Shown: piece after piece, positions 41,901 to 64,000 of the stretch
How positions within the stretch are numbered: the stretch's first letter is position 1
Layout of the letters: the number at the start of each line of letters is the position of its first letter
Assembly (NCBI GenBank): GCA_950295325.1
Contig: OX485805.1
Span: 10,976,501-11,040,500, forward strand
Length of the DNA stretch: 64,000 bases
Direction: 5' to 3'
DNA from: Polytrichum commune
Taxonomy: Eukaryota; Streptophyta; Polytrichopsida; Polytrichales; Polytrichaceae
The notes under the pieces: model-generated
The model's database searches: none
What the model was told of the DNA's origin: nothing
What the model saw: the letters and a program-made list of their open reading frames with translations, nothing else
Program-made: the position numbers and the translations under genes

Positions 41901-42281
41901 AAGGTGCAATATTAGTTTGGTTTAATACTGAGCATGCATTAATTTATGTATTGTTTCTAAAATAGTAATTTGGATGTTCATATTAAATTCTAGCTTCTTT
42001 TGTATGTTTATTAGTTGCAATTGGAAAAATCTTCTACTTCTATTAGAATGAGTTTTTTTGTAGTCAAGAAGAAGTTGGATTAATAGCCCAGGAAAGATCT
42101 TTTGGTTTCTTTGAGGCAAATGGTGGGTATTTTGTAGATTTGGTGGGAAAGAAAGGTTGTTGTGGTTGTAGAAAACTCTCTTAGTGTCCTACCTTTGTAA
42201 GGAAAAGGTTTTAGTGTCATTGGTATTTTTCCTTGATCCCAAATTGTCTTCAATTCTATTTTGACCCTTATGCAATGGGGA
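41901..42281. other. AT-rich spacer, nothing recognised
   Basis: No gene, no repeat beyond short AT runs. Confidence 0.4.
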
Positions 42282-42350
42282 GTGCTATCTTGTGAGCGGT
42301 GAGCAGTGAGCAGTGAGCGATGAGCGGTAATTTGTGAGCGGTGAAGAAAG
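42282..42350 (+). repeat. TIR-like heptamer repeat, probable end of an older element (Element C)
   Basis: GTGCTATCTTGTGAGCGGT followed by GAGCAGT, GAGCAGT, GAGCGAT, GAGCGGT heptamers matches the left TIR of Element A (GCTATTCTATGAGCAGT and onward) in the same orientation. A shorter scrap of the same kind is at 42452-42478. Confidence 0.6.
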
Positions 42351-42451
42351 CAAAATATTTGGTGATAAGACTACTAATATTCTATAACCGTGGCCTAAAG
42401 AATATAATTTTAGGGTTCATTAGTAAGAAGATTGGGGAGGACAAACAACAT

Positions 42452-42478
42452 GAATGCTAGATTGTGAGCAGTGAGCAA
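42452..42478 (+). repeat. Short TIR-like scrap
   Basis: AATGCTAGATTGTGAGCAGT plus GAGCAACG; same orientation and same family as the Element A TIR. Confidence 0.45.
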
Positions 42479-42987: not shown

Positions 42988-42997
42988 GTGGAGGTGA
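42988..42997 (+). repeat. Element A target site duplication, left copy
   Basis: GTGGAGGTGA, identical to 53644-53653 in the same orientation; 10 bp, within the MULE range. Confidence 0.8.
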
Positions 42998-43054
42998 GAG
43001 GAATGCTATTCTATGAGCAGTGAGCAGTGAGCGTTGAGCGGTGAGCGATAACTT
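42998..43054 (+). repeat. Element A left terminal inverted repeat
   Basis: Starts GAGGAATGCTATTCT, then heptamers GAGCAGT, GAGCAGT, GAGCGTT, GAGCGGT, GAGCGAT, then AACTT. Reverse complement of 53588-53643 with few differences and one short indel. Confidence 0.82.
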
Positions 43055-46000
43055 CTACAGTTTTTAGATATTTTTTATTGAAAATAAAGCCCTATAATCA
43101 AGAATAGAGCAAGAATTTGAAAACTTTTGAGCTCTATGACCGCGGTTTTCACTGAAAACTTGAAAGTTGTAGAACACAATTTTTATTAAAGGGGCCTATA
43201 TCCGTGACAATTCCTGGGAGCTCAAGATACTTTGTATGATCAAGAAAGTCGCCATTACTTCAATCACTGCTACATAGAGAGCTCGACACTGCTTCTAAAT
43301 CAAAGTAGCGTAGAACTCGAGGGTTAACATGATTCTTAGGAGTGAAGAAGGATGTCAAATTCCCAGAGCTACCATGGGCATACGCCAAGGCCATGGCTTC
43401 AGCATATACAGGTAAGCCACGAGGACTTGGGGGCGGTGACGGAAAGTACCAAGTTGAAGGTGGAGTTCGTAGCGGTCTCCTTGGATTTGTCAAACTACCA
43501 TGTTCAGAGCAAGATTTAGAGATGGACAAATGATGGATTACAATTAAGAGATAAATAGAAAACAATGTCAACCAACAAAGGCGTGGACTTATTCACATAT
43601 ATCGTGCAAAGGGGCATCTGGAATGGACTCGTCATCATCAATCAGGTCGCCCGGAGTAGAGAAAGTCGAAGCATTTGGAGGTGGAACTTCTCCTCCACAA
43701 TTCGAACAAAAGAATCATTCACAAGAAGTTGCTGAGAAGTATATGCGTTTGACAATGCAACAACCTTCATCTTCATGGGATGACGCTTAGGGGGAGACAA
43801 GAACGTGATGGCCGTACTGGACTCCGGGACATCAACTTTCTGGCGCTTCGTAATTGGCTCTGCTGGAAGTACTAAAGGACTCAGAGGTGATGCAGGAAGT
43901 CTAGATGCACTTGATGCAGAGAAGAGAGGCGGCGCCACAACCGGGGAAGTTGCCCTCTGAACCTGATAAGAAACGGGAGCCTTCTTCTGCCTCAGTTGCC
44001 TCTTGGATTTTGAGGCCGGCCGTTGACTGGCAAGCACCTCAAGCGGAGTGTCGACGGTATCCGAGGGAGTCCCAGTTCGAAGGGAAGGTGGTTGGATAGA
44101 GTCCTGAAGAGCGATGTCAAACGAAGGGGCCTTTGAAGCTGGGCAATCAAGATACCAACCACATCGCTCCCAGTGCACAGAATCCCATGATTTCATGATC
44201 CCCTCAGTGAGCATGAAATCCTCACTATCTATCTCCAAGAAATTAACAAAGAAGGGAGGGGATCTAGAGATAGCCTTGGAGGGGAAGAGGACATATTTGA
44301 AGTACCGGTACAGGACACGGTGTAATGCTGGCTTGAACAAGTACTGCTTGTCGATAGTGTTGTTCTTGTTCACTCCTTTCTCCACTGCGAATTCGCGGAA
44401 GAATGCCGTGTCCCGTAATGAAATGCGAATTTGCTCAATATAATCAAATATGGTGGGAATTGGATCCCGGCCATCAGGTTGGTAGTTGATGGTGGCCTTT
44501 TGATCACGCAAGACACCATCGAGAAGTTTTTGTGCTTCCACTGCCAACTGCATAGCAAGACAGAGGAGTTATGAACACAGAAGACAAAAAATTTGCAATG
44601 GACTAGCAATAAAGATGAAAGTTCAACATCAATTTTTGAGAACTCAATAAAGAGGGCAGGTGGAGAATCACATATTTGAGCCCACTATGTTGCCTTATTC
44701 AACCAAGTGTAAAAGGCGTCATCGTTGAAACCTTGCTTGGGGAATTTCAGTTGTACCCGAAGGCTTGTAGGCTGATTCCAGTGTTCAAGCCAAAGTACCT
44801 TCATGGAAGGATCCATGGCAGACACAGCCAACATCCACAACTTCTCTAACTTCATCTCAACACCGTCATCACGACACTCATAATGAGTCTTTACTTCGGC
44901 AAGAAAAGCATGAGTGTTCTGAGGATCAGCAATTGGTAAGATCTTCTTCAACTCACTTTTGAAATGCACTTTGGCACGTGTAACCACCTTGCCAACGATG
45001 TCATCAACGCGTTGAGATGTCCAGTCCTCAGGGTTTGGATATCGATCATAAAATTTTCACTCTGCAGATGCTGCAACCACTCCAATTTCTTGCTGACACA
45101 TTTGAAAAGCAAGGAATAAGGATATTAGTAATGCGTGTAACATATAAATATGGAGGAAGAGAAAAGTGGGAATGAAACCATAGGAAGACTATCAAAATAA
45201 TTGAACTTGGTAGAGTATGGAGGTGAGCGATGCAGTTGTAAGGGTGAACCAAGTCTTGGTTTTAGGATTATTTTGTTTTGTCTCCGCAGCTCGAACTTCA
45301 TCTTGAGACACCAAGGACTTGAAGAACTCCACTGGTTGTTTGGCAAGACTCTGAGTGCGGTAGAGCCGATGCACAAGGTTTGCAACCACATGTGAATTTT
45401 CATTTCTCCTGGGTGGCAGAAAATCAAGATGGAATTAGAGATGAGGTACCATGAAAAAAACGAGATGAAATCAAGAGAGCCTGTGATTGCAATGAGAACA
45501 TACCAGTTGACCTCGTGTAAGGCAGTGAGCATGGATATAACATCCTCATTCACAACGAGAATAATACTCTCGACCGTATAATGCCAAGAAATGTCATCCA
45601 GGTGGTCATTGTTGATAATTGGCATCCAAGCTTGGATGCGGTGGTTGCCATCCCAAACATGGAACATCTTCCCACAAAAGACTTGGAGAACTGGATCGGC
45701 GGCTAGCATGGCCTCAAATTCGTTGTTCACTGTCATCCAATGTTGACTCCAAGTGGAAATGATCTCTTCGAAAACGTCTGAAGTTTTGCCTTCATTGTCC
45801 TCCAGGGCAACATAAAAAACACCATTACCTTCCATGTAATCGTTCTTTTGGAAATGCGAAGCCAACTTCCGGACATCATTCTTAAGGAAGGGATGGACCA
45901 CGGGAAGACAAACCATTCAACAAAGAGGAATGAAGATTTTGGACTTGTTCCTCGGTTGAAATCTAAGTCCCTCAATCCTGGATTTGGTGCTGGGAATCTC

Positions 46001-46774
46001 ATTAGAGACCATGGTATGGAGCTTCGAGCGAGCATCTCTTGGATTGTCTGAAAATGAAGGCAAATTCAGCAGATATTGCATGAGATATTGCATGAGAATT
46101 CTGCCTCAAGATAATCGTTCAATAAATCATTTACTGATTGATTACAATGTGACATGTATATCAGCAGTTAAGAAAGCAATACGTGAGCCAAAAACGTGAG
46201 TGAATGTTCATTTTGAAAATCCCACTAATGAGTTAATAGCAAACTGCAAAATGAACAGAGGACATCCAGGTTTGGACTGGTGACCGACGCAGAACATACC
46301 GGCAGGCTCACCCGAAGAAGCTGAGGAAGCGCACAATGCCATATTAGTCACTGGAAGTCATAATAGAATTGTGTGCAAACAAAATTAACTCGATTTCTAA
46401 AATATCAGAAGAAGAGAGGCATTTGATTACATGGTGAATGACCCCTAATAATTTGCGCACCTCATAATCGACAAGGTTCATTCACGAAATTGGAATGCAA
46501 CACCAAACCACATGAAATTGGAATGAATAAATAAACCCCAAATCTGAAAGCAATGTGGAATGCACCTTCCCCACCATCTCCTAGACTCATAATACTCGCT
46601 TCAACTGAAACACATTCAACACAATGCCACCTTCAACTCATGTGAGAAGAATGTAAACATTTATTAAGAAATTGGCTGACCTGTTTCTCGAGAATTTCAA
46701 GAATACGGTCTCGCATGATAGCTGAGAGCAACCCACAGCCCTAAGCCCACAACCCTCAACCCTCAACCCTCAGC

Positions 46775-49680
46775 ACCTGAAAGCTACAAGCAACTTGAGA
46801 GCAACAACCGAGCAACCTGAGAGAAACAAGAGAGCAACCTGAGCAACCTTAGAGCAACTTGAGCAACCTGAGAGCAATCCAATGGAAATTCCACCTTTTA
46901 GCACTAAGCAACCTGAGAGCACCTTAAGAGCGACCTGAGAGCACATTAAGAGAAATCTAAGCAACCTGAGAGCACAATAAGAGCGACCTGAGAGCACCTT
47001 ACGAGAAATCTAAGCAACCTGAGAGCACATTAAGAGAAATCTAAGCAACCTTAAAGCACATTAAGAGCGACCTGAGAGCACATTAAGAGAAATCTAAGCA
47101 ACCTGAGAGCACATTAAGAGCGACCTGAGAGCACATTAAGAGAAATCCAAGCAACCTCAGAGCACATCAAGAGAAATCTAAGCAACCTCATAGCACATTA
47201 AGAGATACCTGAGAGCACCTTAAGAGCCACCTGGGAGCAACCAGGATCCCTTAGGGTCCAGCCAATAGCCCCTAGCCGGCACCGGCGGGGTGCCTCAGGC
47301 ACCCTATGAAAATTCCAATTTTTAAATCTAAGCAACCTGAGAGCACCTTAACAGCCACCTGGGAGCAACCAGGATCCCTCAGGGTCCAGCCAATAGCCCC
47401 TAGCCGGCACCGGCGGGGTGCCTCAGGCACCCAATGAAAATTCCAACTTTTAAATCTAAGCAACCTGAGAGCACCTTAAGAGCCACCTGGGAGCAACCAT
47501 GATCCCTCAGGGTCCAGCCAATAGCCCCTAGCCGGCACCGGCGGGGTGCCTCATGCACCCAATGAAAATTCCAACTTTTAAATCTAAGCAACCTGAGAGC
47601 ACCTTAAGAGAAATCTAAGCAACCAGAGAGCACCTTAAGAGCCACATGGGAGCAACCAGAGAGCACCTTAAGAGCCACATGGGAGCAACCAAGATCCCTC
47701 AGGGTCCAGCCAAGAGCCCCTAGCCGGCACCGGCGGGGTGCCTCAGGCACCCAATGAAAATTCCAACTTTTAAATCTAAGAAACCTGAGATGTCGCAACC
47801 CTTGCTAGCCCCCCTTGACAATCTTGCCAATTTTCAATTCTCTCCACCAAGAGTTGGGGCCAAGTAGACATTTTCCCTTAGCTACTGGGCCTAGAACCCC
47901 CCAGCAGCTTCAGACCATCATAACTTCCTTGTGTAATGTCTGATCATAACAACTAACCACTTCATCTTCATCTCCGCTTCACGTAGATGCCGATGGACTG
48001 CTCACTTGCCCCATTCAAGCAAGTGATGAGGAAGTTATGCCTGTTTGAAACTTGGCAGTGCCACCTGGGAGCAGCCAAGAGCCCCTAGCCGGCACCGGCG
48101 GGGTGCCTCAGGCACCCAATGAAAATTCCAACTTTTAAATCTAAGCAACCTAAGATGTCGCAACCCTTGCTAGCCCCCCTTGACAATCTTGCCAATTTTC
48201 AATTCTCTCCACCAAGAGTTGGGGCCAAGTAGACATTTTCCCTTAGCTACTGGGCCTAGAACCCCCCAGCAGCTTCAGACCATCATAACTTCCTTGTGTA
48301 ATGTCTGATCATAACAACTAACCACTTCATCTTCATCTCCGCTTCACGTAGATGCCGATGGACTGCTCACTTGCCCCATTCAAGCAAGTGATGAGGAAGT
48401 TATGCCTGTTTGAAACTTGGCAGTGCCACCTGGGAGCAGCCAAGAGCCCCTAGCCGGCACCGGCGGGGTGCCTCAGGCACCCAATGAAAATTCCAACTTT
48501 TAAATCTAAGCAACCTAAGATGTCGCAACCCTTGCTAGCCCCCCTTGACAATCTTGCCAATTTTCAATTCTCTCCACCAAGAGTTGGGGCCAAGTAGACA
48601 TTTTCCCTTAGCTACTGGGCCTAGAACCCCCCAGCAGCTTCAGACCATCATAACTTCCTTGTATGATGTCTGATCATAACAAACAACCACTTCATCTTCA
48701 TCTACGCTTCACGTAGATGCCGATGGACTGCTCACTTGCCCCATTCAGGCAAGTAATGAGGAAGTTGTGCCTGTTTGAAACTTGGCAGTGCCACGTGGGA
48801 GCAGCCAAGAGCCCCTAGCCGGCACCGGCGGGGTGCCTCAGGCACCCTATGAAAATTCCAACTTTTAAATCTAAGCAACCTGAGAGCACCTTAACAGCCA
48901 CCTGGGAGCAACCAGGATCCCTCAGGGTCCAGCCAAGAGACCCTAGCCGGCACCGGCGGGGTGCCTCAGGCACCCAATGAAAATTCCAACTTTTAAATCT
49001 AAGCAACCTGAGAGCACCTTAAGAGCCACTTGGGAGCAACCGGGATCCCTCAGGGTCCAGCCCAGAGCCCCTAGCCGGCACCGGCGGGGTGCCTCAGGCA
49101 CCCAATGAAAATTCCAACTTTTAAATCTAAGCAACCTGAGAGCACCTTAAGAGAAATCTAAGCAACTTGAGAGCACATTAAGAGCGACTTGGGAGCACCT
49201 TAAGAGAAATCTAAGCAACCTGAGAGCACATTAAGAGCGACTTGGGAGCACCTTAAGAGAAATCTAAGCAACCTGAGAGCACATTAAGAGCGACCTGGGA
49301 GCACCTTAAGAGAAATCTAAGCCACCTGAGAGCACCTTAAGAGCCACGTGGGAGCAACCAAGATCCCTCAGGGTCCAGCCCAGAGCCCCTAGCCGGCACC
49401 GGCGGGGTGCCTCAGGCACCCAATGAAAATTCCAACTTTTAAATCTAAGCGACCTGAGAGCACATGAAGAGCGACCTGATAGCACATTAAGAGAAATCTA
49501 AGCAACATGAGAGCACCTTAAGAGCGACCTGATAGCACATCAAGAGAAATCTAAGCAACATAAGAGCACCTTAAGAGCGACCTGGGAGCACCTTAAGAGA
49601 GATCTAAGCAACCTGAGAGCACAATAAGAGCGACATGGGAGCACATTAAGAGCGACCCAGAAGCAATCTGATTGCAACCC
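46775..49680. repeat. Minisatellite of Element A (128-bp unit, 32-bp subunits)
   Basis: The array lies in the first intron of the ParB-like gene. The short subunit 'aatctaagcaacctgagagc' plus 'acattaagag' (about 32 bp) dominates both edges. The long unit of 128 bp adds 'caggatccctcagggtccag', 'cccctagccggcaccggcgg' and 'ggtgcctcaggcacccaatg'. Within each long unit GGCACC, GGTGCC and GGCACC alternate, so two overlapping hairpins can form. Copies are nearly identical, indicating recent homogenisation. Confidence 0.93.
47791..48885. repeat. 365-bp higher-order repeat, three copies
   Basis: Starts at 47791, 48156 and 48521, exactly 365 bp apart. Each contains 'tgtcgcaacccttgctagcc', 'agttggggccaagtagacat', 'ctactgggcctagaa' and 'cacttgccccattca'. 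The first two copies are almost identical; the third has several substitutions. Nested in the 128-bp array. Confidence 0.93.
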
Positions 49681-49947
49681 ATAGGCACAAGCACAAGTTT
49701 TCTGAAGGCTAGAAGCATGAAGAAACCTGCAAAATTTTATTAGGGTTTCAGGATTCAAGGCTCACCTGCGATGTCGCCCTCGAGGTTGCACACCTCCGTC
49801 GACGACGACTCTCCAAGCTGTCTCGATGTACTACCTCTTTGATTGCCCGCTGTGACCTCCTTGGTGTCCATGGCTGTCGGCGCAGGATTCATCTGCCACA
49901 GCTTGCGCACCCTCTCAAAAGCTTGGAAATGTTAAGGGTGCTGCTAG

Positions 49948-52935
49948 ATATGTTCTAGGGTTACCGCTTGCCTAACCCTCTCACTAGCACCTGCCCGCCC
50001 TACTATCGATGGCCACGCATGGACCCGAACTATCACGTCCAATATCTCTAACGATTTTGGTCTCACTTTTCGAACCTCTTCTTGTTTAGGTCATTTACGG
50101 TGCGATAATGTTGACTGTGAGTTCCTTACTCGAGTACACCGCACCACACCTATTAATGAAACGGAGTGGGAGGGCAACTCATCTTTGCCCTTTGAGTGTG
50201 GTACCGTGCCTCCCAAGGATTCAACCATCGTTTGTTCCATTTGTAAGGTTTCGCCGAATTGTGTTGCCTTGTGTCCGGCTAGGATTTATTATGTAGTTGG
50301 ATCAGAATCTATGACTCGGGTTTGTATTCACTTCGGAATCCATGCCCATCCGGTCAAAACTGGTGATTATCGCGACTCCATTGAGCATACTACCAACTTC
50401 CTGAGTGAACAAATTCAAAGCACTCCTACAGCTACCAACTCCGCTTTAGTTTTGGAAGCTAGCAAAGACTTAGTTGGAGACATGCTCCTAGCGCCTGAGG
50501 GTTCACAACCAAAATTCCTCTCTGTAGATGACCTCCTGCCTTTGTTTGATCGTTGTAAGCACCTTACTTCGCCTAGCATCCGTAATATTGTATCGGGTTT
50601 CAAATACATCCGTAGATTTGGGGTTATGGATAGCATCACCAAACTTCGTGGGTTAAGCAACTGGCCTTATGTCCAGGAGAACAAGTTTCCAGGCCAAGGA
50701 GCGGAAACTGACAAGGTCTTTGTGTTCCAAATGTCTGAGGTAGGACCGGGTAGTGGAGTCGACCTCGTGAAACGGATGCAAGCCGGTGGAGACCTCGAAA
50801 ACGCCTGGCTCATGTTTGACCATGTTAAGCGTGTGCAAAGTTGGACTACAATGACGTGCCATGTTTATGATGCCACATTTTGTTGAGTAATGACCATTGC
50901 CGTCTGCGACATGCAGTCCGAGGATACCGCTGCTCAAATTGTGGTTTGGAAAAACCTCAACGTTGTTATGGCTCGCCACAACGTTTTTCAACCAAACTTC
51001 AAAGGATTTATGGCAGATAGTGCTCAAGCCAATTGGAATGCTATCCGTATTGTCTACGGAAACGGAGATGCATCTGTGCCCATGGAAAACAAGGAGAGAA
51101 CGTGCCTCTTTCACTGGACTCAGTCCCTCGAGAAGCACACAAAGGCCTACATTAGACTCGACCTTCAAGATCAGCACCGATTGCATTGCAAGAAATACAA
51201 GAACGCCAAGACCATTTCTGAAGCTGAAATGTGCTACCTTGCCATTCGCGCGTGGTGGCTTTCGTCTGGTGCCGCATCTGAGGATGCCATATCCCGACTC
51301 GACCTCTGGCTTGCTTTTTGGCATTTCCGCTACCGCCAATGGGGTGGCTTCATGCAATTGGTAAGTTCTTCGCTCATTGAACGTCTACCCATCCATTGAT
51401 AAAGCAATCATCAATCGTCTCCTACATGTTTCCTAATCGATTCTTTCTAAACTCCTTCTCCATAGGACTTGAACGAAGTTGAGTTGGTTGAAATGCCTTC
51501 CTGCAATTTGGCCGAGACCGTGCACAATAAGTGGCTCCAACAATCCGGCCACCGTGGTAAGGATCCATACGTTGCAACAGTTGATGACTACGTGCGCGCA
51601 TTTATGCAATGTGTCTCGTACTACCAGTACTTAAAAGGAGATTGTGTTGGTACTGGCCCGTCCAAGGAAGAGTTGAAGTTACGTGCTGCACAACGTTCTT
51701 CGGAGATTACCGGCAACACCAAGTCCCTTCACGAAGCAATGACTAGAATGCCCGGAGCACAAGAATTTTGCATCCGCACGCCACACTTAGAAGGTGAAGA
51801 AGTCTTCCTATCATTGAAATGGAAGGCTGACCTTCCTCCAGGTTCGGAACTTGACTCTCACCGACCTGACAAGATCTCCATCTCTCGTCCCCGAGTGCAA
51901 ACGCGGTCTTCCATCAAAAACTCTCAAACGGCCTCACCAACCGCTGATTCAGAATCTCCTGAAACGTTTGCAACTCCAATTGCGCCGCAGCAATCGAACG
52001 GCAAGACTCGAGTAAGTGATGTCACCCCACTTGCTCCTTTGCAGCATGTTACAGCAGTTCAAGAATCAGCTTGTGACGAAAGTAAGTGGCACATCGCACG
52101 TCTTCCTAAGACGTCTGCAAAGGCTTGCTTTACTATACAAGCGATGACAAAGAATAAGTGTGTGGCCCGTATTGTTCAAGACGGGAAGAGTACCGCTGCG
52201 CCAACGTACACCGGGATGATGACCAATTACCAAAAGAATAAGCAAGAACTCTTGCAATTCTTCTTTTGTAACGATGATATTGAAAGGTGTGTTAAAGGAA
52301 CTCGCAGGAAGTGGGTTATATCAAGGCCTGAAGTCCCTGAGACTTGGCTTGTCAAGATGGGGACAAACCTTACCCGCAAGGAGATCCTCCAATTGGAGAC
52401 TGCTGGATTTCGCCTTCCTCAACGACAAGAAATCTCTCCAAGACGATTGTTTCAAGACAACCTCTCCCACGTGGACTTGACTTCGTATGTTACTCCGGCA
52501 TCTCCGGATGAGTTCCCCAAGCGCAGGTCCGGGAAGAATATCCGTTGCATGAGTAAGGCCCCTTCCACACGTCACGCCAACAACTGCGCCTCTGCTTTCA
52601 CGTTAAAAGTTTGCATTCGCAACATTAGCATGGTGCTTGCCCCAGCTCTTGGCTGTATTGTTACCTTGGATTCTGGTTCTCCTCCCAATATCCACCAGTA
52701 CCACTTGACTATTTCTCAGCTTCTGGCGTGCACTTGTCACAATTTCAAGGAAATGGCAACCAAGGCACTTGGAAAGCGCGGTCAGTGGGCCAATTGTAAG
52801 CACCTATACTTTGTATTTACGATAATTTATGGACTTGATCCTGATTCTGATACTTTTATTCATGCTGTTAGTTTTAGCTTTAATGAGGTCAAGCAAATCC
52901 TTCAGAGTGGATTGTTGACCCAGACAACCTCTTAG
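49948..52935 (+). pseudogene. Element A transposase (MULE-like DDE with SWIM finger), one nonsense codon
   Basis: Two exons, 49948-51360 and 51467-52935, joined GT-AG in phase 0. The N-terminal part has cysteine pairs of zinc-finger type (SSCLGHLRCDNVDCEFLTR, later CSICKVSPNC). The core has the first Asp in CHVYDATFC (codon 50869), the second in GFMADSAQANWNAI (51016), CLFHWTQSLEKH (the CxxH of MULEs) and Glu in NLAETVHNKW (51514). A C-terminal SWIM finger follows (CTCHNF ... WANCKHL, about 52730-52804). A single TGA at 50884-50886 lies right after the first catalytic Asp, probably a CGA-to-TGA change. No ATG opens the frame, and the copy at 63425 has a longer N-terminus, so the start is truncated or on a missing exon. 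Otherwise it is remarkably intact. Confidence 0.83.
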
Positions 52936-53587
52936 GCTTTGGATGAAGTACTCTTGTAATTTCATTTCAATCACATCAATGAAATTGAGGTAGTGAGACG
53001 GAAAGGGCCACTACCAAGTGCAGTATTTTTATACCGTCACTCTTTAAAGGCGCTACAGTATTGAATTTGAATGGTTTAGTTTAATACTCATCAATTACTG
53101 TTTCCTTCATTATACAAAATCTTGTATAGAGATGTTGAGTTCATTGTCTTCTCAGAGAAACGTATGTATGCAGCCTCTGTTTTAATCATGAACTAGTGAT
53201 TTTAAAAGGGCCACTTCGAGGTATTTGATGTATCAACGTTTTTGTTGACCTCGAAGCTTCATTTAATTTTCTTTCTGATAGTCTAGAAACCTTAGGTGTC
53301 TGATATCTCCACTTTTCTTGAATTCATCTTCAATCTCATGGATCTCAAAATATGCCAATGTAATTTAATTTTGCTGCATAGAAATACTCCACAATGTTTG
53401 TCAATATTGATTTCGACTCCCTAAACCCTAAAAACATCCCAAAAACAACTTTGCAACGATCACTGTGGAGGAATTTTCCACGGGCATAGGTCCCAAAATT
53501 TACTATAATTGGAAATATATTTGCAAAACAATGATTTTTTTAATATACCCTGCACATTAAACTATTATTTTAACTAAAAAAAGAAAA
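52936..53587. other. 3' flank of the Element A transposase
   Basis: AT-rich sequence between the stop codon and the right TIR. No gene was recognised; the transposase 3' UTR should lie at its left end. Confidence 0.5.
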
Positions 53588-53643
53588 ACTTATCGCTCAC
53601 TGCTCACCGCTTACTGCTCATTGCTCGCAAAATAGCGTCGCTT
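53588..53643 (-). repeat. Element A right terminal inverted repeat
   Basis: Reverse complement reads AAGCGACGCTATTTTGCGAG with further heptamers GAGCAGT, AAGCGGT, GAGCAGT, GAGCGAT and then AAGTT, matching the left TIR. Confidence 0.82.
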
Positions 53644-53653
53644 GTGGAGGTGA
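53644..53653 (+). repeat. Element A target site duplication, right copy
   Basis: GTGGAGGTGA, same as 42988-42997. Confidence 0.8.
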
Positions 53654-53705
53654 TGGACTTGTTACAAATCTTGGATCTTCAAAAAAGGGTTGCCAACGTA
53701 GGCAA
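53644..53705 (-). pseudogene. Older ParB-like gene copy (Element C), other side of the insertion
   Basis: On - the sequence reads RWQPFFEDPRFVTSPSPP and runs into the duplicated target. Continued across Element A it gives the RSLLIYAET part at 42987-42843, in the register of the Element A last exon (FPSPPPSPRGLPVYAEA). Sequence further right (to about 54060, for example NFEDSDDSSIVNRKGIYLFC on -) may be another piece of the same or a different gene. Confidence 0.55.
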
Positions 53706-56590
53706 CATTGTGCTATCACATTACTAGCACATGACAACATAGATGTGTTAATAAATATTGATGTATCCATAATAGTCCAAAAAAATACATATATAATATA
53801 ATTCAAGTAAAAATTATGCAATCAACCATATGAAGCTTTCGAATCAGATAAACAAACAAAACTTACTCACAAAATAGATAGATGCCCTTGCGATTAACAA
53901 TTGAAGAATCATCCGAGTCTTCAAAATTGGTATCTTTGCCAATAGGTAAAGGAGATTATATAATCAAAGGCTTCAAGATGGAATCAGAAACATCTTTATC
54001 ACCTTCCAATGCCAAGAGGTGATGCTTCAAAGCGCGGCAAGCATGTATGGAGGGTCCTATCAAGAGATAATAAACAAATATAAAAAGAACAATCAATAAG
54101 AGCATGTTAATTTATAAATAATTATGCAATTCCAATTCAGAATGTAGAGTTTTACTCTTAAAACAATACAAATACCATCCACATTCATACCTATAGGCCT
54201 TGTCCCAATCTATGCATATTTTAGGAATGAACATGAAATTCCCCGATTAAACATCATTGAAACTATCAAAAAGTGTTGGTAGCTTGGCCAAAGCTTTGGC
54301 ATGCAATAACACACACTTAAAATATTTATGAAAATTTTAAAACCAAATTAAAATAAATTAAAATAAAATATGAGTATTAAACATCAAATATATACAATAC
54401 AAATATCAAATATACATGTAAACAACCCGCCTCATGATTTGAAATCCCGTGTTGCTTATAAAAAATCTTGTTTTTCATAATGTCATCATTCAATTTGAGC
54501 AATTTGAAAAATGTCGTTTTTCAACAAGTGGTCCTCCAAGATTCAATATGATCAACAAAAGTGGCAAAGGTTGCATTGCATCAGGGGCGATCTTGATAAT
54601 AATGTTTAATTCAAAAATTATGGATTCATAAAGAATAAGAGCTTCTTTAGAAAATTGTTAAAAAATAAAACACCTAAAAACAAAAATATTAAAAATATAT
54701 AATATAGAAACAATTTTAAATTTTTTTTAATCAAAAACAAGATTGGACGAGATATTCATACATGATTCCAAAATGTTGCTTTGTGTAACCACATATCAAA
54801 AGGCTTATCAAAAATAGATTTTTTTAGAAATTTCATAAAATATGAAATGCAAAAGTTGAAATCGACAGCTCCAAACATTTGATCTTTTGTGCGGTATCTA
54901 CTTTCAATATAACAAGATATTGAAGTTTTTTCTTGATTTATTTAAAGCTCATTATAACACAAATCATAATGCCGTTTGCTTTAAGCCAAGAAACCATGAC
55001 TCAAACTAGGATCTGCAATGGGTAAATGTTTTGCAAGAGTATAATATAATTCGACACATTTAGCGTCCATTGTTACATTCATAAATTCTATAATCCCTTT
55101 AGAGGACCTCTTATGCTCTAAATTTTTTCTTGGCCAAATTTCATGCATCAGCAATATTACATATTTTTTAAATATTGGTTGAATATAAAAATATGATACA
55201 AAATAAGGAGATCACGAAAAAACCGAAGATTTTTATGAAAATTATATTATATAAATAATTCAATAAGATATCTCGTGTAAACGTATACCAAGTTACAATT
55301 GTAATGGTCAGATATCAATAGATTTTGTAGTTTTGATAAAAAAATTTCTAATGAATTACACACGATACAATTGATAAATATATAAACTTTCAACATGACT
55401 GAAACAACAAATATAAATTAAATTAAATTAAAAATTAAAAATTAAAAATTAAAAAACTAATCATAAAAAACCTTACATGTTCATGCATTGCCTTGACTAA
55501 TACATAAATATTGGGAGATGGATTCAACAAAATAAAATTATTGAAATGTGTCAATTTGCTTCTTCATAATGAACCTTACCAATAACAAATCTCCACGCTT
55601 GTAAATGATCATTTTTATTCTAAATTTAAAATATTTTGCCTATAAATTTATTGAGAATATTCTTTTCTTTTAAATACTTATATTTAGTGTATACTTTACA
55701 AATCTATCAATTCTGAAGTCACATCCTTAATTCCATATAATTGTTCACCACGGAAATATAAAATACGACACTTTCAACTCTATAATCATGAAAAATAATT
55801 CTTCAAACTTAAAAACATATGACATCAAAGTTGTTCGAACCAAATGCAATGAGAGCAAACGACATACAAGAATGAACAATCTCAACTTGGAAGGAAGTTG
55901 AAATTGCAGATTTTCAATTATTGAATGGAATCAAAAGAATGATCATTCAAGAATTGCTATCTCACACGATAAAGAATTGCTATAGCGTTTAATTCACATA
56001 AATCATTATATAGCTTGCTACCAGAAGCCAAATATTTTTAGATATTATTAGTTTTCATTTACAACAAAAATATCATAACTTATCAAATATAAACCTGTTC
56101 ATCTAATTTTTTCAACACACAAATTCAACAACTTTTCAATAATAAAAATTCAACTTAAATAAAAAAATATTTTATGAACAAGAGGTAGAACTAAGTAAAT
56201 TCAATATGATCTTATTTTTTTCATATTTTTTTAATAAAAATCTCTAATTTTTATGAACCTTCAAAATTGCCTAATGGATATAAGTTATCTAAAAAATAAA
56301 TTCTAAAATGTACGAATGATGTACATTAGACTACAAATCCATAATTCCACAAAAACAATTGATTTTAGGAAATTTACAAAAATTAAATTTGAAGTCTAAA
56401 ATCTTATATTAAATTATATGCCTTGATGTAATCTAAATGTACATACTTATTTTTTAACACCATCTAAATAAGTTTTGTAATTTTCAAAATTCATCTCCAA
56501 AAATCTAAATCTATCAATTTTGGATTTAAAAAAAAACTAAATCACACCCCTACACACACATAATATGAAGTTCAAGCATTTTGGGTTTTC
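53706..56590. other. Very AT-rich region without genes
   Basis: The sequence is strongly AT-rich, unlike the flanking transposons. No credible coding frame, TIR or tandem array was found apart from short A/T runs such as 'aaattaaaaattaaaaatt' near 55425. Confidence 0.55.
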
Positions 56591-57980
56591 TAGGATATTG
56601 GCGGTGCCGCCAATATCCTCAAACTATTAATAAAGATTAAAGTTGGTGTTTCGCTATGCTATCAAATTCTTCTTTATTTTAATATTTGATTCTCACGAGG
56701 GTATTGGCGGTACCACCAATATCCTCAAATAAAATTGCATATGCCTATATAGAATACATATTACAATCACATATTTTTTTATATGATTTATAGCTACATA
56801 TGTTTTAATAAAATATAAAAAATCCATACATAGAATAATATAAATGTTTACATCATACTTTGTTATGTCCGAACTTCCGAAAACCAACAACACATACTTA
56901 TCTCACCACCGTCTCTCTTATGTTTGTTACTCCTCTTAAGGTTCAACAAACGAAAAAAATCCAAACTTAGGATTTTCTACTTTTTATATTTAATTTTTAA
57001 CAAATAAATCTTATAAGATGAAGAACTACATTTGAATGACGACATTATTTGAATGGCGGATATTTGTACCAAAGGTATTGGCGATGCCGCCAATAACTCT
57101 GACCTTATTAAATGTATTGTCAGTCTCATGACCGGGGGTATTCGCGGCACCGCCAATACCCCAGACGCTAGCATATGTATTTCAAGTATTAAATCCATGG
57201 AATTTTGGTAGTGCCGCCAATATACATGACGCTCTCATATGTATTCAAGTTTCATACCCGGATGATATTGGCGATGCAACCACTATCCTTTGGGCTCTTC
57301 TACATATTTCCGTTTTTATATTGGATAGTATTGGCAGTGCCGCCAATATTTTTTTTGCTCTCATACGTATTTTCATTTTCATATCCTAGGGTAATAAATG
57401 ATCCCGCCAATGCCCCTTAGGCTTTCATACGTATTTTGTATTTCGTACCCGAATGGTATTAGTAGTGCCGATTATACCCTTCAGGCTCTCACACACATTT
57501 TGAGTTTTGTACATGGGTGGTATTGGCGGTGTTGCCAATAGTTTTGTCAGTCTTTTACTTATTTTTCGGTGCTTATAGCAGCCCACCTACAAACGACTAT
57601 AAACCTTAAACAAATAAATATAAATACGAAAATAAAAATTTAAGATATATATGTTTGTAAATGCAAGTAAAATAAAGAGACTGATGTTTCGGTCTGCACA
57701 AACCTAGGTTCGAATCCGGTTGGTTGCATTGATTTGTGCTATTTCATAATGAGCTAGTGATTAGACAATAAATAAAGTATAACAAATATATAGAAGGTTT
57801 TCCTATGCACATGTGCGTAGATATTTTTGAATTACATTTTAGTAGAATTATCCATTTTGAACCAACCAAATTGTTTGCTCACCCATCCGGCTAATTTTTG
57901 TTATTATAAAAAAATTTCCATTTCGTATTCCAAGGGTATTGGTATTGCCACCAATATCCTTTGCGCTCTCTGAATGATTT
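56590..57980. repeat. Palindromic repeats (ATTGGCGG..CCGCCAAT) in AT-rich DNA
   Basis: About eleven copies of a GC-rich palindrome lie near 56597, 56700, 57067, 57137, 57210, 57265, 57330, 57395, 57455, 57520 and 57940. The first has perfect 12-bp arms (GGATATTGGCGG and its complement) around TG. Between 57040 and 57560 they recur about every 65 bp with linker 'gctctcatatgtattt'. Some arms show changes on one side only. Confidence 0.85.
57690..57735 (+). other. Isolated tRNA B-box-like motif
   Basis: CCTAGGTTCGAATCCGG contains a perfect T-arm loop motif. There is no A-box or acceptor pairing within tRNA distance, so this is not a tRNA gene. It could be a tRNA 3' relic. Confidence 0.3.
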
Positions 57981-58984
57981 GCTATTTTCTATGAGTTGTT
58001 TAAAATATAAGAATTATAAGATCAGTACTTATCCAATAGATTTCATCTTCGGCTTCATCTTTTTTGTTTTTGTGCATGGAGGTTTTTTTTTATCTTCTTC
58101 AGTTTTTTCTTCAATTTTAATTTGATCTGTAATATTGTTGGATAGATCTCCATCAAGTTTATTTCTTACCTCCACATTTTTTTCTCCAAATCATTCAAAC
58201 TTATACTATTTTGTGTTTCTGCTAAGTCGTCTATATATTTATGCACTACAATGTGGGAGTTTTTTCTTATATTGCTCATTTGTTCTCGAACTTTCTTTGT
58301 TGTAAAATACAATCATTTTTGTATTTTCATTATTACGCTAAATTATGACTACTCTCATAATAATATGTCTCTTGAATTTATATAATAAAATCTAAGCATT
58401 ATACAACTCATTCTCTATAATACTCACATGAAATTTGATGTATACTCTTGCACATATGTATTGAATATTATCAACGTGTAGTACTATTATATTGATTATA
58501 ATACTTATTTCAAAATATTTTGATAGCGTACATTTTTTTGTTATTTTCATGATGTATGACCAAAAGCTAGTTACAAGCAATAACTTAATTCTTAAATTCC
58601 AAAATGACAAGAAAACTTATAGTATTAAACTGGGTAGAATTAGAGTAAGGATTAGGGTTCGCGAATTTCCTCCACTTTTTTTTAGGAAATTATTATAGTC
58701 ATTTTTCATTTATTTTCACGCGGAGACCCTCTTATTGCTTTCTATTTCATGATTTGAAAGTAATTATCTTAATAGTTGTTGGATATTTGGGTTGCAATAT
58801 ATGATTTTTCTCATATAGGGCTTGTTACTTAAGGCCCCAAACTGCCAATACAAATAATATCTCATTCACATATAACAATGTTTTTTTGTCTCTCTGTAAT
58901 GAATGACATTGTGAGCAAATATAATCGGCATGGAAATTATTTAGGTTGGAAGATGGAGAAGATGAAATGCATAAACCATACCTT
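57981..58984. other. AT-rich spacer left of Element B
   Basis: No gene or clear TIR was recognised. The left end of Element B should lie here or further left, but no GAGCRGT heptamer end is visible. Confidence 0.4.
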
Positions 58985-61900
58985 GTAAAGGAATTTAACG
59001 AAGACATCCGCGGTTAGGTTGTACCAAGTAGGGCGACTCTCATTTGTCTTATCGCAGGTTTTGTAATCAGTTGGAGAGATGAGATCCTTGAATGTCGACA
59101 ACTCCAACCACCCAAACGTACGAATTCAAAGGAACTTGGCATGAATATTTGTCTTCACGTAATCATGTTTGGTTGACCTGAGAAAACATATGTGAGGAAC
59201 AACCAATGAAAAGAATGGAGGAATTCAAAAAACAAATGGAGTATGCTTGCCAATTAATGTCGCTCATTGCGTTGAAGAAAACACCGGTGCATCCACTGGG
59301 GTCGACCACAATACAATCCACCGAAATATGTGAACTCTTCTCATCGGCGTGATTATTATTGATGTGCCTCTACCATGTTGTGAGTCGATGATTTTCTTCC
59401 CACAAAGATGTGGAAGATCTGGGTTATCATTAAGCTTGACATCGAACTTTGCATTGGCCTCTTGCCAGAGAGGGCTCCACGAAGCCATAATCGCAGGGGA
59501 AACCGGTAGGTCCACGGGAACGTCGTTGAAAGCGGAAACGTACATTACCCGATCTCCTTCTCGGTATCTCATTTCAAATTCACATTCCAAACGCTGCACC
59601 TCTACCCCACTAATTGGACGGACAAGAGGGAGGCCTCGCAAGCGGCATAAGGGAATGGAGAAGCGGGACTTACTGGTGGGCTTAATCCGAAGGCGTTGAA
59701 TAACACCATTAGAGTCCTCATTTTGTGATTTGCGAAACTCAAGCTCACACACAACTGGATCCGTGTCGGCAACTGCGAGGACGGTATCTTGGCCAATTGC
59801 AACAACCTTAAAAAAACACAAACAAGATAAACATGTTTAGAACGGAAGAACTCAACACCCTGAACACATGTGGAAATATGGAATGTGTAATTATCAAAAT
59901 CACCTCTCCCTGCATTGGGCCTTGCGAATTCGCACTCTCAACCTGGGCGGCTTCAATTTCGACTTGGGGGCAGCAAGAACAACGTCCTCTCCAGATTGTT
60001 GTTGCACGTGCGCAACCTGAAAGGATTCAAAATCCTAAGAACATGAAAGCATAATAAAACGTTCCAATGAATAATCAAATAAGAACGCATACATGTTACC
60101 AATATCTTTGTAACTATTAACAAACAACTCAAAATTTAGGTTGAACTCAAAGTAATGTAATTATCAAATAGGAATCAAACGAGAACCAACCACATTCAAA
60201 GCCGCCATCATGATGAGATACAAGGTGTCAAACAGGTCTTCGCGAGTGTACATACAAGAAACATCTGAAAAGAAAGCAAGGCTGAGCCAAAGTCATGTAG
60301 ACATTTCAAAATTCCAAAAACAAAACCCTCGGCCAAGAGGAGGCCTCGGATCCGAGGCCTTCTCCCCTACCTCTCACATATTCACCTAAAGAAAGCATAC
60401 CAAGGCCGAGAGCAAAGTCAAGTAGACATTTCATATAGATTTACAAAGCAAAAACCTTCTCCAAAACGATGCCTCGGATCCGAGGCCTCCTCCCCTAACT
60501 CATATTCATTTAACAAAGCATACCAAGGCCGAGAGCAAAGTCAAACACACATTACACTTAGATTTACAAAGCAAAAATCTTCTCGACAAGGAGGCCTCGG
60601 ATCCGAGGCCTCCTTCCCTACCTCTCACATATTCACCTATACAAAGCATACCAAGGCCGAGAGCAAAGTCAAGTAGACATTTCATGTACATTTACAAAGC
60701 AAAAACCCTCTCCAAAAGGAGGCCTCGGATCCGAGGCCTCCTTCCCTACCTCTCACATAGTCACCTACACAAAGCATACCATGGCCGAGAACAAAGTCAA
60801 GCACACATTACACATACATTTACAAAGCAAAAACCCTCTCGACAAGGAGGCCTCGGATCCGAGGCCTCCTCCCTTACCTCTCACATATTCACCTATACAA
60901 AGCATACCAAGGCCGAGAGCAAAGTCAAGTAGACATTTCATGTAAATTTACAAAGCAAAAATCTTCTCCAAAATGAGGCCTCGGATCCGAGGCCTCCTCC
61001 CCTACCTCTCACATATTCACCTACACAGAGCATACCAAGGCCGAGAGCAAAGTCAAACACACATTACACTTAGATTTACAAAGCAAAAACCCTCTCCAAA
61101 ATGAGGCCTCGGATCCGAAGCCTCCTCCCCTACCTCTCACATATTCACCTACACAAAGCACACCAAGGCCGAGAGCAAAGTCAAGTAGACATTTTATGTA
61201 GATTTACAAACCAAAAACCCTCTCCAAAAGGAGGCCTCGGATCCCAGGCCTCCTCCCCTACCTCTCACATATTCACCTACACAACGCATACCCTGGCCGA
61301 GAGCCAACTTATGTACACATTACACTTAGATTTATAAACTAAAAACCCTCTCCACAAGGAGGCCTCGGATCTGAGGCCTGCTCCCCTACCTCTCACATAT
61401 TCACCTATACAAAGCATACAAAGGCCGAGAGCAAAGTCAAGTAGACATTTCATGTAGATTTACAAAGCAAAAACCTTCTCCAAAATGAGGCCTCGGATCT
61501 GAAGCCTCCTCCCCTACCACACACATATTCACCTACACAAAGTATATCCAGGCCGAGAGCCAACTCATGTCCACTTTACACTTAGATTTACAAACCAGAA
61601 ACCCTCTCCAAAAGGAGGCCTCGGATCCGAGGCCTCCTCCTCAACCTCTTACATATTCACCTACACAAAGCATACCAAGGCCGAGAGCAAAGTCAAGCAC
61701 ACATTTTATGTAGATTTACAAACCAAAAACCCTCTCCATAAGGAGGCCTCGGATCCGAGGCCTCCTTCCCCAACCTCACATTATGCACACTTCTCAACCA
61801 ACATAGTATGGCGGAGAGTTCAGAAACCTTACCAAAACTTGGAGGAAGCCATCCCCTAATGCGCCACTATCTTCCGAGGTCCCGTCCTTTGTCGGCGTTA

Positions 61901-62891
61901 TTGAAGTGCTCCTCGAGTCACCTAGGTTTATCTGCGCATTTCCTCTCCCACGGCCACGCCCTCGCCTTGATGTTTGTTGTGTGCCGCCCGCCTTGTTTTG
62001 CATGAATCTTTAAGCAGGGGTGACAATATCCACATGTAGGGTTTGGCGCTCCGGGCCTCCTCCTTCAGCTCTCTCGCGGCCTCCCAACAAATTTGAATTT
62101 AGATCTTCCGCTGACGATGTCTTCTTGGACGCCTTCATTTTTGCTCTTCTTTGAATCGTTGGCTGTCCTGACAGCGGTACTCCCTTCGTTCCTAGCTCTT
62201 CTAACGCCTTCTCATTTTGTTGTGCTACCTCCACATTGTCTTCTTCTTTGTAGCTATTTCCACTCTCTCTACTCCCCCCATCCTCCTATATTTAAGAGAT
62301 AATAATGTTTGTAACAATGATGACAAACCATAATATTTAAGAGATAGTTGTTTCACAATTGAATTTGTTCTACCATTTTAATTATGTGCTCAGACAACTG
62401 AATATATGGAGAACCCGAAGAATACGTACAACACTTGTAGAGTTCGTCTCTTCGCGTGAGTCCTCTTGGATGCTGTCACTTCCCAACTCCTCCACTTGTG
62501 CCATTGTATGTGCTTTACTTCCGTCTGCCTCTTCTATAATCGGTGATAAAAGAAAAGGCCGAATCTCACAGTCTAACCTCCACGAAGGTCTCCGCAGGTA
62601 CTTAATGCTTTGGCTCAAATCCTTGGGCGTCCCACGGCCCTCGATTGGCGCCTTCCTTGACTGTGTCTTTTGTGTCCTCATTGTCTTCCTCTTCTTATCA
62701 GTGTAATGTGTAGACGATCGCTTCTTCTTCTTCCTCTTTGATGGTTCCGCTGTCGGAGGTTGTGAATTGCCTATTTCCTTCATGTGTCCAGGCTCCAGCA
62801 ATTCAGACCAAATCGCTCTATTTCCTTTCCACAACCTCACCACATCAAACTCACACATTGGAAAGAGAGTGAGCACTCGCATTATTCTCAA
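58985..62891 (-). pseudogene. ParB-like gene of Element B, broken paralog of the 43260-49892 gene
   Basis: Likely exons on -: 62891 to about 62432 (ATG; WKGNRAIWSELLEPGHMKE, Lys-rich KRKKKKRSS), about 62234-61835 (Arg/Gly-rich SRRGRGRGRGN; TAA at about 62012-62010), about 60270-60190 (SCMYTREDLFDTLYLIMMAA), about 60008-59902 (KSKLKPPRLRVRIRKAQ), about 59811-59265, and about 59178-58985. The exon at 59811 aligns with the Element A gene: RFSIPLCRLRGLPLVRP against KIFIPLC*MVCLPVVHP, and LPHLCGKKIIDSQH against LQVFCGKMFHVWDGNH. The DGNHR motif is degraded to DSQH and a frameshift follows; the frame resumes as HISVDCIVVDPSGCTGVFF. A stop also interrupts the last exon (HAKFL*IRTFGWLEL). It has extra basic N-terminal exons that the Element A copy lacks. 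Function unknown. Confidence 0.65.
60330..61785. repeat. Minisatellite of Element B (about 128-bp unit with a 24-bp palindrome)
   Basis: Twelve copies, each with a palindrome of arm GGAGGCCTCGGA and its complement, then 'cctacctctcacatattcac', 'acaaagcataccaaggccga', 'gagcaaagtcaagtagacat' and 'agatttacaaagcaaaaacc'. Palindrome centres lie near 60349, 60477, 60602, 60730, 60858, 60985, 61112, 61241, 61369, 61497, 61624 and 61753. The array lies in an intron of the Element B ParB-like gene. Confidence 0.94.
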
Positions 62892-63132
62892 TATATAATG
62901 GCAAGAGCTCCCGATGGGAGGTGTGCTTCACTGTATGACATCCGTCTTTGTAAGGAGGGGTATCTTTTTTTAAGGTGTATGACAGTTTTGTCTCCATCCT
63001 TATAATCCTGCCGTCAATCAAAAGACTGTGGAATTCCGTATGTGTTTATAACTTCATCGTCATCACCATTCTCCTTCTCTATGCACCTTTGCATCTTTGT
63101 TCCTTAACATTTGCGTTCCTCCCGTCTCTAAG

Positions 63133-64000
63133 ATGGCCGAACTTCATTCCCATGGCATCGGGGTCCTTATTCTATTCCCCATTGATGCAAATGGTATTGT
63201 TGTTGTCTCAGGCTTTCATCTTAGCATTAGGTTCTCGTTGAAAGCTAGTACAATCTGGGTAGAACGTGAGATCTTCCATCCTGATACTGGATTGCTCGTT
63301 CAAACTTTGGATGAGACCTCCAAGCTAATGGAGTGTAGGAAATGGAAATGGAAATGACAATGGAAATGTTGTGTAGGAGCTTTGCGCAGGAAAGTATAGG
63401 GTTTATGGCCTTTCAAATTCTCAGATGGGAGTGTCAACAGAAATCCTTACTCCTCTTCGATCGTCCACTTCTACCTTAAGCACCCCGCCGGTAATAAGAG
63501 TCAAGACGGAGCCTGGTGTAGACAACGTTATAGACTTGTCTGATTCTTCAAATGAAGATGTACCAGTGCAGAAGGTTGATGTTCATGATTCCACTCCTTT
63601 GTTTCACTTTGCTTCCTATGTAACCCCTTCTCCTTCTCGCTCTGTGCCTTTAATTCCTTTGGTACCATCTACATCCAAACCTCTTCAAACTATTGTTCAA
63701 TGTCTTCGTCGTCTTGGTTCTATACCTGGTAGTAAGAACGTCCTCAAGAAAATAGATTACGATAAACTCAAAATCCAAGAGATTAATCACCTTCCCCCTC
63801 GTTTCGATGGTACCCAGTTATTTGTCCTCCCTGCAGCAGAAGTCTCATCATCTCAAACCAGGGCCAAGTCGTTGGACGGCATGGACAAGCGATATGATGG
63901 CCATGTTTGGACGAAGACTCAAACCACCAACATTACAAACGAGGACATCGAATTGTACATCTGAGGACGGTCTCAAGCACCTCCAGCTCTAGCTTGTTTT
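63133..64000 (+). pseudogene. N-terminal part of the Element B transposase (runs to window edge)
   Basis: A first exon probably starts at ATG 63133 (MAELHSHGIGVLILFPIDANG...) and a second at about 63425 after AG (MGVSTEILTPLRSS). The second has IRVKTEPGVDNVIDLSDSSNED, which contains a consensus sumoylation site (VKTE) and a SUMO-interacting motif (VIDLSDS). Near its end YDGHVWTKTQTTNITNED aligns with IDGHAWTRTITSNISNDFG at the start of the Element A transposase. A stop at 63962 and a frame change directly after this point show the copy is broken. The catalytic region lies beyond the window. Confidence 0.65.

What the first reader, a model, noticed from the sequence alone, without database searches (positions are those of the whole stretch)
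42998..64000. A recurring head-to-head gene pair: SWIM/DDE transposase plus ParB-like gene
Seen: at 43-53.6 kb and again at 59-64 kb, a MULE-like transposase on + starts next to a multi-exon gene on -. The two - genes are homologous exon by exon, and the two + genes align over DGHAWTRT/DGHVWTKT. Known: autonomous MULEs often carry a second gene (mudrB, ULP-type), but I know of none with a ParB-fold-like partner. Inference: this is a transposon family with its own conserved accessory gene, possibly undescribed.
Basis: partly seen in the sequence, partly recalled or inferred. Interest (0 to 1): 0.9.

Follow-up and report, generated by a model that had tools for sequence, protein, structure and literature searches.

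The report
Moss transposon with ParB-methyltransferase partner gene
A jumping-gene family in what appears to be a moss genome carries, back to back with its own jumping enzyme, a second gene built like a phage protein (a ParB-type fold joined to a DNA-methyltransferase-like part), a combination already described in some algal transposons.

Summary
Window 42998-53643 is a complete, internally deleted Mutator-type (MULE) transposon with matching ends and an exact 10-bp target duplication. It sits inside an older, decayed relative; a third relative starts near 59 kb. All three carry the minus gene; the first and third have it head to head with a transposase gene. In the host genome (407.8 Mb, probably a moss), 18 of 23 exact left ends have the ParB exon and 18 of 23 the methyltransferase exon inside, antisense; 22 of 23 have at least one. 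Of 15 end-to-end spans, 8 hold all three parts, always in the same orientation. The partner gene is more than ParB-like: in a sibling copy it splices into an open frame of 973 residues with an N-terminal ParB/sulfiredoxin fold (AlphaFold2; best PDB folds ParB/Srx) and a C-terminal N4/N6 DNA-methyltransferase-like domain, most of which the window copy lost in a 1.15-kb deletion. Catalytic motif IV is not DPPY-type in any of 22 covered rows (EYPDG or DYPDG in 18). ParB-methyltransferase accessory genes are in print for algal transposons of other superfamilies, so this is a new variant of a known kind: MULE superfamily, apparently land-plant host, altered active site.

The parts
42998..53643 (.). 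Element 1: complete MULE-type transposon, 10,646 bp, internally deleted
   Evidence: Inverted arms 43005-43070/53571-53636, 66 nt, 80%; termini GAGGAATGCTATT / (rc) AAGCGACGCTATT like those of siblings E5 and E6; aligned to E5 in four pieces at 95, 92, 87 (276 bp of spacer) and 97%
42988..42997 (+). Left target-site duplication GTGGAGGTGA
   Evidence: Sequence; E5 and E6 likewise have exact 10-bp duplications
53644..53653 (+). Right target-site duplication GTGGAGGTGA
   Evidence: Sequence
45503..46048 (-). Element 1 accessory gene, N exon: ParB/Srx-like domain with DGNHR motif (one in-frame stop in this copy)
   Evidence: 93 relatives; AF2 of relative P0080 pLDDT 85.3; ParB/Noc/Srx best PDB folds
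45207..45407 (-). Element 1 accessory gene, B exon
   Evidence: tblastn of the exon to E5 92.5%, E6 91.0%
44688..45092 (-). Element 1 accessory gene, C exon (one in-frame stop)
   Evidence: E5 96.3%, E6 93.3%
43688..44547 (-). Element 1 accessory gene, D exon, cut at the deletion junction 43687/43688
   Evidence: the junction lacks 1,154 bp of E5 (its 1777-2930): the end of D, exons E and F, and the first part of G (exon places)
46700..49700 (+). Repeat-rich spacer between the two genes (GCCGGCACCGGCGGGGTGCC and GAGAGCACCTTAAGAG-type units)
   Evidence: Sequence; E5 and E6 spacers also hold tandem repeats, and a 117-bp unit of E5 shares the core GCCGGCACCGGCGGGGT
50006..51361 (+). Element 1 transposase exon 1, N-terminal part deleted at 50006/50007; stop at 50884-50886
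51466..52932 (+). Element 1 transposase exon 2: NLAETVHN (putative E of the DDE triad) and C-terminal SWIM-type CxCx19CxH; stop codon 52933-52935
   Evidence: intron GT 51362 - AG 51465
42277..42331 (+). Left terminus of the older element 2 (GGGGAGTGCTATCTTGTGAGC...)
   Evidence: 4 mismatches to the family terminus; 55-bp match to the E5 terminus, 87%, E 2e-13
53866..55924 (-). Older element 2 accessory gene, decayed: N 55924-55793 and 55658-55539, C 55106-54759, D 54333-54115, G 54057-53866
   Evidence: C E 6e-5, D E 5e-9, G E 7e-5; N pieces E 0.02 with the element 1 exon, down to 1.6e-5 with a relative
58982..59701 (-). Element 3 accessory gene, N exon 59701-59250 (two frames) and possible B exon 59092-58982 (weak, E 0.03)
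63133..64000 (+). Element 3 transposase, N-terminal part; continues to 65573 in L067; residues about 265-666 of relative P0029 missing at 63943/63945
   Evidence: P0029 75% identity over 191 aa

Best explanation
This is a two-gene Mutator-type (MULE / IS256-clade) DNA transposon family of a bryophyte, most likely a moss. The plus gene is the transposase (possible WRKY/GCM-like N-terminal domain, DDE core, C-terminal SWIM-type zinc finger). The divergent minus gene encodes one protein with an N-terminal ParB/sulfiredoxin-fold domain and a C-terminal N4/N6 DNA-methyltransferase-like domain. SHOWN here by computation: element borders, 10-bp target duplications, gene pairing in a fixed divergent orientation, predicted ParB fold, weak methyltransferase profile match, dN/dS below 1 for both genes among copies. 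INFERRED: the accessory protein binds the element's own DNA through the ParB domain (possibly as a nucleotide-dependent clamp) and acts on it with the SAM-binding domain, marking or shielding element DNA so that it escapes host silencing or is recognised for transposition. Because motif IV is (E/D)YPDG-type in place of (D/N/S)PP(Y/F/W), ordinary base-amino methylation may be lost; it may bind SAM and work as a pseudo-enzyme or with altered chemistry. Elements 1 and 3 and the older element of the window are damaged copies.
Against: No function was measured. Pfam, NCBIfam and PHROG matches are below curated cut-offs, weak or absent. Motif IV is not of the known kind in 22 of 22 rows that cover it. 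Five of 23 left ends lack a listed ParB exon, and 4 of 15 spans a listed methyltransferase exon (the lists are truncated, so absence there is weak). Transposase-ParB pairs from the lists alone are few: 13 within 20 kb, of which 8 have the divergent geometry. The compound span holds misoriented hits. At dS 0.02-0.1 the ParB exon's median dN/dS is 0.51, so many copies drift. No copy read here has both genes intact: E5 has a stop at transposase residue 198, E6 has stops in the accessory gene.
Confidence: 0.62

Rival explanations
1. The accessory protein is a structural partner of transposition (as mudrB may be for MuDR): it helps the transposase pair or insert ends, and the methyltransferase-like domain is only a DNA- or SAM-binding scaffold with no role in silencing.
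For: Motif IV is non-canonical in 22 of 22 covered rows while the SAM-side motif DLTAGTG/DLTASTG is kept in 15 of 23; divergent pairing inside the ends; mudrB precedent (PMC6446971, passages).
Against: mudrB has no such domains (recalled); ParB-methyltransferase fusions in phages are discussed as possible anti-defence (PMC12704722, passages).
Confidence: 0.3
2. The accessory gene makes a working amino-methyltransferase with a divergent active site (EYPDG), depositing N4-methylcytosine or N6-methyladenine on element DNA.
For: The motif is conserved: 16 EYPDG, 2 DYPDG, 4 other in 22 covered rows; exon E has no stop in 129 of 150 listed copies by my count of the listing; the algal protein is predicted to make 4mC or 6mA (PMC12477816, passages).
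Against: 0 of 30 aligned rows hold a canonical [DNS]PP[YFW].
Confidence: 0.2
3. The minus gene is an ordinary host family that was captured or hit by chance.
For: Many copies in the genome, 175 ParB-exon sites among the listed hits, most not paired with a listed transposase (lists truncated).
Against: Fixed orientation relative to the left ends in 18 of 18 cases within 12 kb, and no misoriented hit in 14 of 15 spans.
Confidence: 0.03
4. The element belongs to another superfamily (Lanisha/CMCT or hAT) and not to MULE.
Confidence: 0.07

Closest known systems
Sola1-1_Ec32 of the brown alga Ectocarpus and the green and red algal transposons cited with it (PMC12477816, passages; its reference 51 is not held; its reference 50 was not looked up)
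   Same: Opposite-strand accessory gene for one protein with a ParB-like domain and an N4/N6 DNA-methyltransferase domain (1104 aa there, at least 973 aa here); large element
   Different: There Sola1; here a MULE-type transposase with 10-bp duplications, in a probable moss, with altered motif IV (motif IV of the algal protein was not seen)
MuDR and other MULEs with extra ORFs (PMC6446971, passages)
   Same: 8-11 bp duplications, terminal inverted repeats, DDE transposase often with SWIM, sometimes a second ORF
   Different: Its Table 1, as shown in the passages, lists other motifs and ORFs (PMD, FAR1, OTU, SET, MutB and so on) but no ParB or methyltransferase; the words moss, bryophyte and Physcomitrella do not occur in its text
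Phage/bacterial ParB-CTPase fold fused to N6_N4 methyltransferase (PMC12704722, passages)
   Same: Same two-domain combination
   Different: Prokaryotic; those fusions are found with Pfam models, here the match stays below cut-off
DndB, ParB-like repressor of phosphorothioation genes (PMC12704722, passages)
   Same: PF14072 is among the weak matches of the ParB exons (3 of 47 members, best E 0.0059)
   Different: Bacterial, no transposon partner known to me
Lanisha, proposed cut-and-paste superfamily (PMC12730594, passages)
   Same: DNA transposon reported by workers on the moss Ceratodon (host recalled)
   Different: EnSpm-like; placed in a group with mostly 2-5 bp duplications and a CCHH motif
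VANDAL elements with the anti-silencing protein VANC (recalled, not looked up)
   Same: MULE with an accessory gene acting on its own epigenetic state
   Different: Unrelated protein

Membership tests
MULE / Mutator superfamily | 8-11 bp target-site duplication | tested here: met
   Exact 10 bp in 3 of 3 elements with both ends in hand
MULE / Mutator superfamily | Terminal inverted repeats | tested here: met
   66 nt, 80%; same kind of termini in E5 and E6
MULE / Mutator superfamily | RNase H-like DDE core of the Mutator/IS256 type | tested here: met
MULE / Mutator superfamily | C-x2-H between second D and E; SWIM CxCxnCxH | tested here: met
   CxxH[WS] in 66 of 75 relatives; NLAE[TS] in 2 of 75, most relatives ending before exon 2; SWIM pattern in P0001, the only relative over 900 aa, and by eye in window exon 2 and L001
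MULE / Mutator superfamily | Match to a Pfam MULE/Mutator transposase model | tested here: not met
   0 families for the transposase pieces up to E 5 and for P0001, P0002, P0047, P0072 up to E 10. Not a defining trait for divergent members; therefore called MULE-type on borders and fold
ParB/sulfiredoxin fold | Fold | tested here: met
ParB/sulfiredoxin fold | G-x-H-R nucleotide-binding motif | tested here: met
   DGNHR in 72 of 93 relatives; its role in nucleotide binding here was not tested
N4/N6 DNA methyltransferase (PF01555) | Profile match | tested here: inconclusive
   E 0.0055, 17.1 bits against cut-off 26.7; 12 of 30 aligned sequences; PHROG methyltransferases E 0.03 and 0.09
N4/N6 DNA methyltransferase (PF01555) | Motif IV [DNS]PP[YFW] | tested here: not met
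   0 of 22 covered rows; the place of motif IV is inferred from position
N4/N6 DNA methyltransferase (PF01555) | SAM motif I (FxGxG type) | tested here: inconclusive
   DLTAGTG 9 and DLTASTG 6 of 23 covered rows, the rest single variants: glycine-rich, first F replaced
Transposon ParB-methyltransferase accessory genes (algal) | Two domains in one opposite-strand gene inside a DNA transposon | tested here: met
Transposon ParB-methyltransferase accessory genes (algal) | Common descent with the algal proteins | not testable with these tools
   The algal sequences were not at hand
Lanisha / CMCT | 2-5 bp duplication, CA..TG ends | tested here: not met
   10 bp, GAG..CTC ends in E5 and E6

The most novel reading that the evidence does not exclude
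A land-plant transposon family has turned a phage-type ParB-methyltransferase into a self-addressing SAM-binding factor with a new active-site motif ((E/D)YPDG) that controls the element's own DNA state, a chemistry or pseudo-enzyme role not described for this enzyme class as far as I know.
Probability: 0.3. Interest if true: 0.82.

Novelty: new variant of a known kind. Interest (0 to 1): 0.64.

Why it matters
Transposons that carry their own DNA-modifying or DNA-marking proteins show directly how mobile elements negotiate with host silencing. A many-copy family in a haploid-dominant plant group (mosses, some of them easily transformed) would make that testable by knock-out and long-read methylation calls. 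It also links a phage-type domain combination to a Mutator-type element and adds an unusual, conserved replacement of the methyltransferase catalytic motif.

Tried and rejected
Rejected: chance or host-gene reading of the minus gene; Lanisha. Led nowhere: viral-contig scans with A2, P0001 and A4 (no relative); genome contigs gave one locus, a plant-like contig (L001) inside a cyanobacterial MAG, and another contig of that MAG, L002, carries a ParB-exon relative. PDB sequence searches found no relevant match. No terminal repeat was found for element 3. A 215-aa transposase query of the genome did not complete, so transposase counts rest on the 69 scored of 2820 candidates. None of the listings of the paper searches showed such a gene in a moss; only the listed top rows were seen, so this is no proof that none is in print.
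Full report
WHAT IS IN THE WINDOW. The window lies at G000:C3:10976501-11040500 of a 407.8-Mb assembly whose seven largest contigs hold 99.6% of the bases. A moss is likely: the one named relative of the ParB exon is a Ceratodon purpureus protein, M758_UG129100, 52% identical.

Element 1 spans 42998-53643. Its ends are inverted (66 nt, 80%) and it is flanked by an exact 10-bp direct repeat, GTGGAGGTGA. The minus gene (46048-43645) and the plus gene (49948-52932) diverge from a repeat-rich spacer. Element 1 appears to sit inside an older element: a diverged left terminus at 42277 (4 mismatches; 55 bp at 87% to E5, E 2e-13) and, right of element 1, a decayed minus gene with N, C, D and G pieces in order at 55924-53866. 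A third element has its minus gene at 59701-58982 (N exon; the B exon is weak, E 0.03) and its plus gene from 63133 to 65573, past the window end. That plus gene lacks about 400 residues of its core.

SIBLINGS SHOW THE FULL GENES. Two further copies were read whole: E5 (L063+L064, 14,280 bp) and E6 (L065+L066, 16,359 bp). Both have the same kind of termini, exact 10-bp duplications (TAGGTATTTC, CAGTGTTTGC) and both genes, divergent. Aligned to E5, element 1 is 92-97% identical outside the spacer but lacks 1,154 bp of the minus gene and about 2.2 kb with the end of the spacer and the transposase N-terminus. In E5 the minus gene's seven recognised exons (N, B, C, D, E, F, G) splice at GT-AG sites into one open frame of 974 codons, 973 residues and a stop; further 5' exons are likely but were not defined. 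E6 has stops in that gene but a transposase frame open for 1287 codons from the start of the homology; E5's transposase has a stop at residue 198.

GENOME-WIDE PAIRING. Exact left ends: 23, with 0 in the reversed-pattern control; exact right ends: 17, control 0. Lists used: 69 transposase hits (of 2820 candidates), 175 ParB-exon sites merged from 150 listed rows and 150, 150 methyltransferase-exon sites (of 1059 candidates). They are the best-scoring parts only, so absences count little. Within 12 kb of the 23 left ends: ParB exon 18, methyltransferase exon 18, at least one 22, all antisense; the 23rd end has a transposase only; transposase within 30 kb, same strand, 11 of 23. 15 of 23 face a right end within 60 kb. 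8 of the 15 contain all three in 13.8-16.5 kb; one more is a 35.7-kb compound span that also holds one ParB and one methyltransferase hit in the wrong orientation; 3 have ParB alone, 1 ParB plus methyltransferase (58.6 kb), 1 methyltransferase plus transposase (24.0 kb), 1 transposase alone. Independently of the ends, transposase-methyltransferase pairs within 25 kb: 24, of which 20 are divergent with the methyltransferase upstream, 2 opposite downstream and 2 same-strand; 1.27 expected. Against the reading: transposase-ParB pairs within 20 kb number only 13 from the 69 x 175 lists (1.18 expected): 8 divergent upstream, 2 opposite downstream, 3 same-strand; the last five may be neighbouring elements, which was not checked.

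SELECTION. Among fetched exons, median dN/dS at dS 0.1-0.3 is 0.317 for the ParB exon (77 pairs) and 0.202 for transposase exon 1 (120 pairs). 256 of 496 and 246 of 435 possible pairs were usable, the rest dropped as saturated or short. 15 of 32 ParB and 19 of 30 transposase loci lack in-frame stops in the aligned part; copies with stops were kept in the pairs, stop codons skipped; the 32 include E5 and E6, whose ParB exons are also among the other 30. Closer pairs (dS 0.02-0.1) drift more: 0.513 and 0.278.

COMPARISON. [quoted passage not shown] The kind is therefore known. What I did not see in the listings of my searches is the same gene in a MULE or in a land plant. PMC6446971 (passages, Table 1 as shown) lists other extra ORFs for MULEs. 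PMC12704722 (passages) reports PF01555 fusions to the ParB fold as frequent in phages.

MECHANISM. The arrangement argues that the protein works on or for the element: it is kept at a similar place and orientation, under constraint, over subfamilies whose methyltransferase exon is as little as 42% identical to that of E5. I hold most likely that the ParB part addresses element DNA and the SAM-binding part marks or shields it; the non-canonical motif IV makes a pseudo-enzyme or altered chemistry a serious option. I put the identity (MULE-type element with ParB-methyltransferase-like partner) at about 0.92 and this function at about 0.4; the stated 0.62 is a compromise between the two.

Noticed in passing
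G000 contig C4 (59.1 Mb): 23 of the 69 best transposase hits lie on C4, 10.0 expected by length (binomial p 7e-5); ParB (22 of 175) and methyltransferase exons (22 of 150) are not enriched there. C4 may be a sex chromosome or otherwise repeat-rich; the named Ceratodon relative carries a UG-type locus tag, which I read as U chromosome.
   Followed up: partly
P0002 residues 1-300 and L063+L064 10544-11041: The transposase N-terminal domain occurs twice in tandem in this subfamily (about 46% identity between the copies).
   Followed up: no
L001 (4.1 kb) and L002: Contigs filed in a cyanobacterial MAG (AVDCRST_MAG81) carry this plant-type transposase with intron and a ParB exon: apparent plant contamination of the bin.
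   Followed up: partly
window 60269-61770: Tandem array of about 128-bp units around the palindrome AAGGAGGCCTCGGATCCGAGGCCTCCTT between the two genes of element 3; the spacers of E1, E5 and E6 hold other tandem repeats.
   Followed up: no
window 42449-42476: A further terminus-like stretch CATGAATGCTAGATTGTGAGCAGTGAGC (5 mismatches), perhaps a remnant of another family member.
   Followed up: no
window 56590-57960: Repeated GGTATTGGCGGTRCCRCCAATA-type palindromes in an AT-rich stretch.
   Followed up: no
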